Source of the DNA: Candidatus Poribacteria bacterium
GTDB lineage: Bacteria > Poribacteria > WGA-4E > WGA-3G
Direction of reading: 5' to 3'
Length of the DNA: 64,000 nucleotides
NCBI GenBank assembly: GCA_028824125.1
Contig: JAPPES010000127.1
Location: 24,070-88,069 of the forward strand
Shown: piece by piece, positions 2,960-5,071 of the stretch
How positions within the stretch are numbered: position 1 is the first letter of the stretch
Layout of the letters: each line of letters opens with the position of its first letter
Position numbers and translations under genes: made by a program
Notes under the pieces: model-generated
Seen by the model: the letters and a program-made list of their open reading frames with translations, nothing else
Databases searched by the model: none
What the model was told of the DNA's origin: nothing

Positions 2960-3229
2960 ATGCCACGCACCGATTATACCTCCGAAGTTATTGCTGTCCG
3001 AGGTAAAGAGATTTATCAGCAGCAGATTCGGGACAAGGTTGAACCAAAACACAAAGGCAAGTTCTTATCCGTTGATATTGAAACAGGGAACTACGAAATT
3101 GACACTGACGATCTGTCTCCAACGATACGGCTACTTGAGAAACGCCCCGATGCGGTTATTTATAGTTTACGAATAGGGTTTCAGGCTGCCCATCGAATTG
3201 GCTTTAAAATTTCACGCCCGACACAATGA
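2960..3229 (+). CDS. Small protein paired with clan AA protease
   Basis: This ORF encodes about 89 residues. The track begins at a TTG at 2906 inside transketolase, but the ATG at 2960 has AAGGAG upstream and starts MPRTDYTSEVIAVRG. It contains the segment GKFLSVDIETGNYEIDTDD, followed by a short C-terminal helix. Its stop overlaps the ATG of the aspartic protease gene (ATGA), so the two are translationally coupled. Small proteins of this type often sit directly upstream of clan AA aspartic proteases in bacterial genomes, where the pair behaves like a two-gene cassette. I know of no established function and call none. Confidence 0.75.
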   Translation: MPRTDYTSEVIAVRGKEIYQQQIRDKVEPKHKGKFLSVDIETGNYEIDTDDLSPTIRLLEKRPDAVIYSLRIGFQAAHRIGFKISRPTQ

Positions 3230-3603
3230 TTATAGGAAAAGTTACAACTAACTTGGAAGCTGTCATTGAATTGGAAGTTGGCAACTTAAATCAGTGGGAG
3301 AAAATTGAAAGCGTTATTGACACAGGATTCTCTGGTTATTTGGCGTTACCAAGTGATCTAATTGACCGCTTCAAACTTCCCCAAATTGATACTCAAGAAG
3401 TGATACTCGGTGATGGAACTACGGTCGTTCTGGAGAAATATCTTGTAAAAGTCCTATGGTATGGTAAAGAACGCAGCGTATCTGCGCTGCGGGCAGACGG
3501 TGGGCCATTGGCTGGGATGTCCTTGTTTTATGGGAGCCACATGATATTAGATGTTGTGGAAGATGGAAATGTGGAGATTGATGCTCTACCATTAATAGGG
3601 TAA
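3226..3603 (+). CDS. Clan AA (retropepsin-like) aspartic protease
   Basis: A 125-residue protein with the aspartic-protease hallmark IDTGFSGYLALP (catalytic D at residue 32 of the DTG). It also has a LGDGTTVVLEKYLVKV strand pair and a C-terminal LAGMSLFYGSHMILDV region that corresponds to the second psi-loop. Size and layout fit the bacterial clan AA family, which would work as a homodimer because a single chain has one DTG. No signal peptide is visible. The ATG overlaps the stop of the small upstream gene, so they form a coupled pair. Substrate is unknown. Confidence 0.85.
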   Translation: MIIGKVTTNLEAVIELEVGNLNQWEKIESVIDTGFSGYLALPSDLIDRFKLPQIDTQEVILGDGTTVVLEKYLVKVLWYGKERSVSALRADGGPLAGMSLFYGSHMILDVVEDGNVEIDALPLIG

Positions 3604-3629: not shown

Positions 3630-3998
3630 ATGCAGCAAACTATCGTTTGGATTGTAGTGTTAGGTGTTATTCTGCTGGTAGGCATTGGCATGATTTTCGC
3701 CTTACGCGCACCGCGCACTGTCGCTAAAACATACCCTGCCGATAAAGGACCAAACTATATTGATGTTTCTGAGTATCCACAGAAGATGCAAGAACGTTAC
3801 GAACTGTTTACTCGGAAATGTAGCCGATGCCATACCGTTGCACGCCCAATTAATTCTACCTTTACACCGGAAGAATGGCGAAAATATGTGCATAAAATGC
3901 GGCAAAAACCAGGCTCCGGACTCACCCTCAAAACAGCGGAACAGATAATAGAATTTTTAATTTACGATGCGAAACATCGGGAGAAAAATGCACCATGA
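3630..3998 (+). CDS. Membrane-anchored c-type cytochrome
   Basis: A 122-residue protein. Residues ~5-25 form a hydrophobic anchor (VWIVVLGVILLVGIGMIFAL), followed by an export-side domain with one haem-c site, CSRCH (residues 64-68). A possible distal Met lies in the YVHKMRQKPGSGLT region. One haem and ~95 exported residues suit a small electron carrier. Its stop overlaps the start of the thioredoxin-like gene by four bases (ATGATGA), so the two are translationally coupled. That pairing suggests a shared role in envelope redox or cytochrome maturation; this is inference. Confidence 0.82.
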   Translation: MQQTIVWIVVLGVILLVGIGMIFALRAPRTVAKTYPADKGPNYIDVSEYPQKMQERYELFTRKCSRCHTVARPINSTFTPEEWRKYVHKMRQKPGSGLTLKTAEQIIEFLIYDAKHREKNAP

Positions 3999-5071
3999 TG
4001 AAACTAATACTTACGACTTGTATAGTGCTGTCTTTTGCTGTAGGATTGCAAGCAGCACCTGTCAAAAAACTGCAAATTTCAATTGATAATCAACTCGTTA
4101 CATTTACCTCAACACCCATATTCAAAAACGGCGTGTGGTTAGTGCCGATAGAATCTATATGCCAACAATTAGGCTTAAAGATTGAAACGCCAGATGGCGG
4201 AGAGATGGTAGTTATCTGCGGCGAAGGTGAAGAAGCGGATTTGTGTGTGCCGCTACAATTTGGTGCAAGTGCATTTGACATTGATGGCGTTATTTACGCT
4301 AAACTTGAAAACATCACTGAACCGTTCGGATTTGAAATATACAAAGCCTCAGAAACCGAATTAGAGATTGTTCGACCAGAACAACTCGCCCCTCAATTTA
4401 CGCTACCTGATCTTGATGGGACACCAAAACGTTTACAGGATTTCCGCGGAAAGAAAACGCTCCTCTATATTTGGGGTTCATGGTGAGGCTGTCGTGGACA
4501 ACTGTCAGGATGGCAGAAATTTTACGCAAAACACAGTAATAAGCTAAACCTCATCTCCATTGCAATTGATGCGCAGGGCGCGTCTGTTGTGAAACCGTGG
4601 CACGATAAGGCTAACGCTGAATTCATCACGCTTGTTGACTCACAGAATATATTGGGCAACAGCTATAATCTCAAAGCGATTCCCTATGGCGTTATGATTG
4701 ATGAGGCAGGACGGATTGTCAAATCGCCTTTTAGCATAAATGTTGCGAAAAAAGAAACTATCGCAATGCTTGAGAAGTGGCTATCCGATACCACCTACAA
4801 CGCAACCCTCCTTCGTAATTTAAAACCGCTCAACAAATCGCAAAATCCGAAGATTATTGAGGCCAATGCCCGTTTTCAACTTGGACTTACCCTGTTGGAG
4901 ATAGGGAAAAAGGCGGAAGCGATGACAGAATGGCGAAAGGCACTTGCATTAGACCCCCAAAATTGGATTATCCATAAGCAAATTTGGGCAGTTGAGCATC
5001 CCAACAAATTCTATGATGGGAATGTGGATTATGGATGGCAAAAGGCACAGTTAGAAGCGGAAAAGAGATAG
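3995..5071 (+). CDS. Exported thioredoxin-like (TlpA/ResA-type) protein with in-frame TGA, probable selenoprotein
   Basis: Two ORF-track entries (3995-4486 and 4589-5071) are one frame broken only by TGA at 4484-4486; read through, the product is 358 residues. Order: signal peptide (ILTTCIVLSFAVGLQAAP), a ~100-residue domain resembling copper-amine-oxidase N-terminal repeats, then an AhpC/TSA thioredoxin fold from APQFTLPDLDGTPKRLQDF, and a C-terminal TPR-like tail (LGLTLLEIGKKAEAMTEWRK). The TGA is codon 164, within LLYIWGSW-TGA-GCRGQL. This is where family members have the first cysteine of the redox motif, so the product reads WGSW-Sec-GCR. Sixteen bases downstream begins a hairpin with stem CTGTC/GGCAG and loop AGGAT, placed like a bacterial SECIS. 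The frame and family conservation continue fully after the TGA. The alternative is a nonsense mutation or base error. No Sec machinery gene is in the window. Confidence 0.82.
4502..4516 (+). promoter_or_regulatory. Candidate SECIS hairpin downstream of in-frame TGA
   Basis: CTGTC (4502-4506) pairs with GGCAG (4512-4516) around a five-base loop AGGAT, one G-T pair included. The loop begins 21 bases after the TGA, and its second base is G. Both properties match what is known of bacterial SECIS elements, and the loop resembles the AGGTCT loop of the E. coli fdhF SECIS. A competing, longer stem (GCTGTC with GATGGC) is also possible. Five base pairs is short, so this is suggestive rather than proof. 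Confidence 0.4.

What the first reader, a model, noticed from the sequence alone, without database searches (positions are those of the whole stretch)
3995..5071. In-frame TGA exactly at the redox cysteine of an exported thioredoxin-like protein: selenocysteine candidate
Seen: one TGA (4484) interrupts an otherwise continuous 358-codon frame at WGSW-TGA-GCRGQ, the catalytic position of TlpA/ResA-type thioredoxin folds. A hairpin with loop AGGAT begins 16 bases downstream. Known: bacterial selenoproteins place Sec at redox cysteines and need a SECIS just after UGA. Inference: the product has a Sec-Gly-Cys site and works with the haem protein encoded immediately upstream (overlapping genes). Unlike the four frameshifts in this window, this is a single codon in a functional position with conserved sequence on both sides.
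Basis: partly seen in the sequence, partly recalled or inferred. Interest (0 to 1): 0.9.

Follow-up and report, generated by a model that had tools for sequence, protein, structure and literature searches.

The report
Poribacterial UGC-type ResA-like selenoprotein
A Poribacteria bacterium reads a TGA "stop" codon as the rare amino acid selenocysteine in the active site of an exported thioredoxin-like protein; every relative examined does the same, so the gene is real, but it belongs to a selenoprotein type that has already been described.

Summary
Confirmed. The frame 3995-5071 is interrupted only by TGA 4484-4486, and comparative evidence makes that TGA a selenocysteine codon. All 59 Poribacteria genomes matching the active-site DNA pattern have TGA there; none has TGC, TGT or TGG. 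Relatives in a second phylum (Armatimonadota) also have TGA. The genome encodes tRNA-Sec directly downstream of selB, plus selA and selD. A 5-bp stem-loop 16 nt after the TGA forms in 56 of 56 distinct sequences, against a mean of 13.6 expected from protein and codon use. In three lineages both bases of its outer pair changed together (C-G to U-A) by paired synonymous changes. The protein is ResA/TlpA-like (AlphaFold2 pLDDT 88.9; ResA is the closest solved fold), with a C-terminal TPR part. Its site is Sec-Gly-Cys, one residue shorter than CxxC. A membrane-anchored CxxCH (haem-type) gene lies just upstream in 41 of 44 loci. The type is known: "Prx-like (UGC-containing)" (2008), "UGC-containing TlpA" (2026 review), NCBIfam WAxxUGC_long. 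This protein scores 144.7 bits against that model's cut-off of 300, so it is a divergent Poribacterial member. Most likely function: a periplasmic seleno-thiol-disulfide oxidoreductase, perhaps serving the neighbouring haem protein (inferred).

The parts
3995..5071 (+). Selenoprotein gene, 358 aa with one Sec; ResA/TlpA-like UGC protein
   Evidence: Frame and translation; families; orthologues; fold
4484..4486 (+). TGA read as selenocysteine (Sec164)
   Evidence: TGA in 59 of 59 pattern-matching Poribacteria genomes and in Armatimonadota homologues
4490..4492 (+). Cys166, presumed resolving partner of Sec164 (U-G-C)
   Evidence: Invariant column in a 28-sequence alignment; TGT or TGC in 56 of 56
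4502..4516 (+). SECIS-like stem-loop CTGTC-AGGAT-GGCAG, 5-bp stem, loop with GG at positions 2-3
   Evidence: Full stem in 56 of 56, null mean 13.6 and maximum 24; outer pair covaries CG/UA; partners slid by 1-6 nt give at most 17 of 56
3995..4057 (+). Probable signal peptide (MMKLILTTCIVLSFAVGLQA-A)
   Evidence: Read from the sequence, inferred; no signal-peptide program was run; low model confidence there fits
4217..4246 (+). Invariant Cys75 (4217-4219) and Cys84 (4244-4246) in the N-terminal domain
   Evidence: Invariant in the 28-sequence alignment; this domain matches Cu_amine_oxidN1 just below its cut-off (23.5 of 24.2 bits); the domain is absent from shorter Armatimonadota homologues
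4382..4735 (+). Thioredoxin-fold domain, about residues 130-247, with conserved Pro230 as presumed cis-Pro
   Evidence: AhpC-TSA 5.3e-15; PDB sequence matches; Foldseek to ResA, TM 0.84-0.86 by target length
4862..4963 (+). C-terminal TPR-like helical part
   Evidence: TPR_2 2.2e-5, 24.7 bits, just below its cut-off of 27; helices 285-357 in the model
3630..3998 (+). Upstream membrane-anchored protein with one CxxCH (KCSRCH) motif, stop overlapping the selenoprotein start
   Evidence: Weak Dehyd-heme_bind match (21.3 bits, cut-off 25.2); homologue upstream in 41 of 44 loci

Best explanation
The gene encodes an exported, ResA/TlpA-like selenoprotein. Shown by comparison: the single in-frame UGA is a conserved Sec codon, followed by a conserved stem-loop, in a genome with a full selA/selB/selC/selD set. 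Inferred from known families: SelB with Sec-tRNA binds the stem-loop and inserts Sec at the position of the nucleophilic cysteine of a thioredoxin fold. Inferred: Sec164 attacks substrate disulfides and Cys166 resolves the intermediate, giving a selenenylsulfide across a single Gly, so the protein is a periplasmic thiol-disulfide oxidoreductase, possibly re-reduced by the genome's DsbD. Inferred with less certainty: its main client is the neighbouring CxxCH protein, or cytochrome c maturation in general.
For: tRNA-Sec 80.1 bits, called by ARAGORN with anticodon tca, next to selB (TIGR00475, 350 bits against a cut-off of 242); selA 611 bits; selD, itself with an in-frame TGA. TGA in 59 of 59 pattern matches in Poribacteria, in a wider pattern that allowed TGC, TGT and TGG. 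TGA in all 7 Armatimonadota homologues read. Stem-loop in 56 of 56 against a codon-usage null of 13.6 (maximum 24); CTG/CAG becomes TTG/CAA together in L091, L099 and L106, from three families. Invariant U164, C166 and P230. ResA fold. One DsbD and three cytochrome c assembly hits in the genome. Poribacteria G003, G004 and G010, in which selA, selC and selD were not found, also lack the gene.
Against: No protein, ribosome-profiling or selenium-labelling data exist here, so Sec insertion itself is not shown. Single-sequence folding of the window RNA prefers a different hairpin, and Rfam gives no match. Redox function and partner are inferred. The CxxCH neighbour is missing near the gene in L086, L088, L091 and in class-level relatives. 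Several genomes have the sel genes but no copy of this gene, and a few incomplete assemblies have the gene but miss one sel gene.
Confidence: 0.95

Rival explanations
1. Sequencing error or a pseudogene: the TGA is a mistaken or decayed TGC/TGT codon.
For: Metagenome assembly; such errors exist in principle.
Against: Same TGA in 59 of 59 Poribacteria pattern matches and in Armatimonadota; dN far below dS downstream of the TGA.
Confidence: 0.005
2. TGA is a genuine stop and the downstream part is translated separately by re-initiation, or as its own gene.
For: A GTG-started ORF 4589-5071 exists.
Against: The TGA cuts a thioredoxin fold at its active site; U-x-C-R and the bases up to the GTG are conserved as codons in phase in all relatives; no +1/-1 gaps around the TGA; the fold is confident across the site.
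Confidence: 0.015
3. UGA is read as another amino acid (reassigned code or Trp suppressor) rather than Sec.
For: Any UGA-decoding tRNA would open the frame.
Against: TGA ends other genes, including the upstream neighbour; the genome has tRNA-Sec and SelA/B/D; a SelB-type stem-loop follows the codon; the site aligns with the catalytic Cys of ResA/TlpA proteins.
Confidence: 0.01
4. It is a selenoprotein, but a peroxidase-like (peroxiredoxin-type) enzyme rather than a disulfide oxidoreductase.
For: Pfam AhpC-TSA and Redoxin are the top families; the 2008 survey calls the type Prx-like (PMC2398784); Sec is a good peroxidatic residue (general knowledge).
Against: The best structural and PDB sequence matches are ResA and other thiol-disulfide oxidoreductases with CxxC at the aligned place; the weak thiol-peroxidase model scores 24.4 bits against a cut-off of 140.
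Confidence: 0.15

Closest known systems
NCBIfam NF041054 WAxxUGC_long, ResA-like WAxxUGC motif-containing protein
   Same: Same W-x-x-W-U-G-C motif, and similarity from the N-terminal domain through the thioredoxin domain; best NCBIfam hit (4.1e-42)
   Different: 144.7 bits against the curated cut-off of 300; here WGSWUGC; the other Poribacteria and Armatimonadota homologues tested also fall below the cut-off
Prx-like (UGC-containing) / UGC-containing TlpA disulfide reductase family selenoprotein (Zhang and Gladyshev 2008, PMC2398784; reviews PMC9312934 and PMC13188914)
   Same: pfam00578 or cd02966 thioredoxin fold with a U-G-C motif
   Different: Neither the 2022 nor the 2026 review text mentions Poribacteria; the extra domains, the haem-protein neighbour and the covarying stem-loop are described here
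ResA / StoA / TlpA thiol-disulfide oxidoreductases (e.g. PDB 1st9, 4nmu, 3erw)
   Same: Exported thioredoxin fold, WxxWC site, cis-Pro, fold match
   Different: CxxC replaced by UxC, one residue shorter and with Sec; extra N-terminal domain and C-terminal TPR part
CGC peptides (CXC motif; Woycechowsky and Raines 2003, as reported in PMC4316792)
   Same: Two chalcogen residues separated by a single Gly; [quoted passage not shown]
   Different: Here natural and with Sec in the first position; no potential has been measured

Membership tests
Bacterial selenoprotein | In-frame UGA conserved across orthologues with coding sequence on both sides | tested here: met
Bacterial selenoprotein | Host has selA, selB, selC and selD | tested here: met
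Bacterial selenoprotein | bSECIS: stem-loop after UGA, G in the first two loop positions, UGA-to-loop distance 16-37 nt (model as given in PMC13188914) | tested here: met
   Loop AGGAT with G at position 2, 20 nt between UGA and loop; stem in 56 of 56, loop GG in 55 of 56
Bacterial selenoprotein | Sec physically present in the protein | not testable with these tools
   Needs mass spectrometry or 75Se labelling
Bacterial selenoprotein | Cys-containing orthologues at the Sec position (usual, not obligatory) | tested here: not met
   The pattern allowing TGN found only TGA in Poribacteria; in Armatimonadota the three TGC matches read (and the one TGG match read) lie in short unrelated frames; two TGT matches and one further TGG match were not read. 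CxxC paralogues exist
UGC-containing TlpA/Prx-like selenoprotein | AhpC-TSA/TlpA thioredoxin fold with U-G-C motif | tested here: met
   family definition
NCBIfam NF041054 WAxxUGC_long (equivalog) | Score at or above the curated cut-off of 300 bits | tested here: not met
   144.7 bits
ResA/TlpA (CxxC thiol-disulfide oxidoreductase) | CxxC active site | tested here: not met
   U-G-C, with one intervening residue, invariant spacing in 28 sequences
ResA/TlpA (CxxC thiol-disulfide oxidoreductase) | ResA-type thioredoxin fold | tested here: met
   Foldseek E 1.6e-10, TM 0.84 by target length

The most novel reading that the evidence does not exclude
Poribacteria keep an obligatory Sec (never Cys) version of a thioredoxin with a one-residue-shortened U-G-C site, joined to an N-terminal domain with a second invariant Cys pair (C75/C84), as the dedicated reductase or isomerase of the CxxCH protein encoded directly upstream: a selenium-dependent haem-protein maturation or redox pair.
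Probability: 0.2. Interest if true: 0.55.

Novelty: new member of a known kind. Interest (0 to 1): 0.35.

Why it matters
Standard gene callers cut this protein in two, so a widespread selenoprotein of a largely uncultured phylum is likely to be annotated as two fragments. The case gives a clean comparative proof of Sec coding, with covarying synonymous changes in the stem-loop. It also points to a natural thioredoxin-fold site with Sec and Cys separated by one Gly, whose chemistry can be tested directly.

Tried and rejected
Sequencing error, real stop with re-initiation, and code reassignment were considered and rejected (see rivals). Cys versions of the motif: none found in 85 Poribacteria genomes; the TGC matches read in Armatimonadota were chance, in short unrelated frames. 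Rfam gave nothing for 4400-4650. Other TGA-joined frames in the window were listed and none shows a redox motif at the TGA. Literature searches for 'WAxxUGC' and for UGC motif with ResA found nothing useful; Woycechowsky and Raines 2003 is not held and is cited through PMC4316792. A small DNA alignment used one wrong coordinate and was not used.

Full report
Observation. The frame 3995-5071 on the + strand is open except for TGA 4484-4486 and gives 358 residues when TGA is read through. The TGA is codon 164 in YIWGSW-U-GCRGQLSGWQ. The gene overlaps by its start codon the stop of the upstream 122-aa CxxCH protein. The window lies in a Candidatus Poribacteria metagenome-assembled genome (G000, 5.59 Mb, 94.4% complete); the named close relatives are all Poribacteria MAGs.

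Is the TGA conserved? A protein search of 85 genomes of the phylum found relatives in 60 at E <= 1e-20; every match that spans the site carries a single TGA. A DNA pattern for W-[AG]-x-W-TGN-[GA]-C-R, which would also accept TGC, TGT and TGG, hit 59 genomes, all with TGA and none with Cys or Trp; the backwards control pattern gave no hits. An Armatimonadia genome holds a relative with TGA at the same place (L088). A pattern scan of 291 genomes of that phylum gave 11 TGA matches. The six of these that were fetched and read are homologues, all TGA, as is L088. Three TGC and one TGG match were also read and lie in short unrelated frames; two TGT matches and one further TGG match were not read. 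Sequencing error is excluded, and purifying selection acts on both sides of the codon.

Machinery. tRNA-Sec scores 80.1 bits against a cut-off of 47, is called by ARAGORN with anticodon tca, and lies directly downstream of selB (350 bits, cut-off 242). selA (611 bits) and selD (369 bits, itself with an in-frame TGA) are present. In the phylum, three genomes with no selA, selC or selD found (G003, G004, G010; G003 and G010 are incomplete) also lack the gene. Many genomes with the machinery lack this gene, so the link is one-way. SelA and SelB in sponge symbionts had been noted before (PMC5649159).

SECIS-like element. Bases 4502-4516 form CTGTC-AGGAT-GGCAG. In 56 distinct sequences the five pairs form in all 56, and the loop keeps GG in 55. 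Replacing codons after the TGA by synonymous codons from each gene's own usage gives the full stem in a mean of 13.6 and at most 24 of 56. Sliding the 3' arm by 1 to 6 nt gives 0 to 17 of 56. The Leu codon at +6 is only CTG (53) or TTG (3), while other conserved Leu columns use four to six codons. The Gln codon at +10 is CAG (53) or CAA (3), and the three TTG and the three CAA are in the same sequences: L091, L099 and L106. These come from three families (f8, f7, f3) whose other members keep CTG/CAG where seen, so they look like three separate paired changes. In a permutation that ignores relatedness, 1 of 20000 reached the observed pairing. Loop position and distance fit the published bSECIS model (PMC13188914). 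Caveats: the minimum-energy fold of the window's own segment is a different hairpin, and Rfam has no match.

Protein. Pfam: AhpC-TSA 5.3e-15 and Redoxin, plus sub-threshold Cu_amine_oxidN1 (N-terminal) and TPR (C-terminal). PDB sequence matches are ResA/TlpA-type proteins. AlphaFold2 on 28 family sequences: pLDDT 88.9, pTM 0.83. Foldseek: top matches are ResA structures, TM 0.84-0.86 by target length. Invariant residues include C75, C84, W160, W163, U164, C166, R167 and P230. Against ResA, StoA and the genome's own paralogues (WATWCGPC) the site is one residue shorter: U-G-C in place of C-x-x-C. A CGC disulfide has a potential of -167 mV and mimics PDI (Woycechowsky and Raines 2003 as reported in PMC4316792). 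How Sec shifts this is not known here. The signal peptide is read by eye.

Neighbourhood. The CxxCH gene is upstream of the selenoprotein in 41 of 44 loci from named genomes, but not in the more distant Poribacteria L086 and L091 or in Armatimonadia L088. It has an N-terminal hydrophobic segment and one KCSRCH motif. The genome has a full-length DsbD and three cytochrome c assembly matches, so a periplasmic electron supply and haem attachment are both possible. That the selenoprotein reduces the CxxCH of its neighbour is an inference from position and fold.

Comparison with the known. The type was recorded as Prx-like (UGC-containing) in the Global Ocean Sampling survey (PMC2398784), kept in the 2022 review (PMC9312934), and listed as UGC-containing TlpA disulfide reductase family in the 2026 review (PMC13188914). 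NCBIfam holds it as NF041054 WAxxUGC_long. This protein is that model's relative (144.7 bits) but well below its cut-off of 300, as are the other Poribacteria and Armatimonadota homologues tested. The two papers found that mention both Poribacteria and selenocysteine were not about such a protein as far as read: one was searched, the other was not opened.

Verdict. The kind is already known, so this is a new, divergent member in a phylum where the literature searched does not describe it. Function beyond 'exported seleno-thiol-disulfide oxidoreductase' is inferred.

Noticed in passing
L047 (G000:C140:63000-69000), + strand, around 2943 and 3815: Two neighbouring redoxin-type lipoprotein frames, each with one in-frame TGA at GGW-TGA-PFC and GGW-TGA-GSC: probable further selenoproteins with UxxC motifs.
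   Followed up: partly
L048 (G000:C104), + strand, frame from about 2453: Another redoxin-type frame with in-frame TGA at ATGG-TGA-PHC, a third UxxC selenoprotein candidate.
   Followed up: partly
G000:C40:806-1732 and selD of 75 other Poribacteria genomes: selD matches carry one in-frame TGA in every genome where selD was found, so selenophosphate synthetase is probably a selenoprotein across the phylum.
   Followed up: no
window 4217-4219 and 4244-4246: Cys75 and Cys84 of the N-terminal domain are invariant in all 28 aligned relatives, a possible second redox pair or structural disulfide.
   Followed up: no
G002 and G078, G011 and G050: More than one selA or tRNA-Sec match in a genome; some are fragments at contig ends (G050, G078), but G002 has two distinct long selA matches and G011 has two full-length tRNA-Sec genes.
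   Followed up: no
window 3226-3603: Small 125-aa protein (IDTGFSGYLALP motif, resembling a retroviral-type aspartic protease by eye; no Pfam hit) between the transketolase-like gene and the CxxCH gene; present in only some relatives.
   Followed up: no
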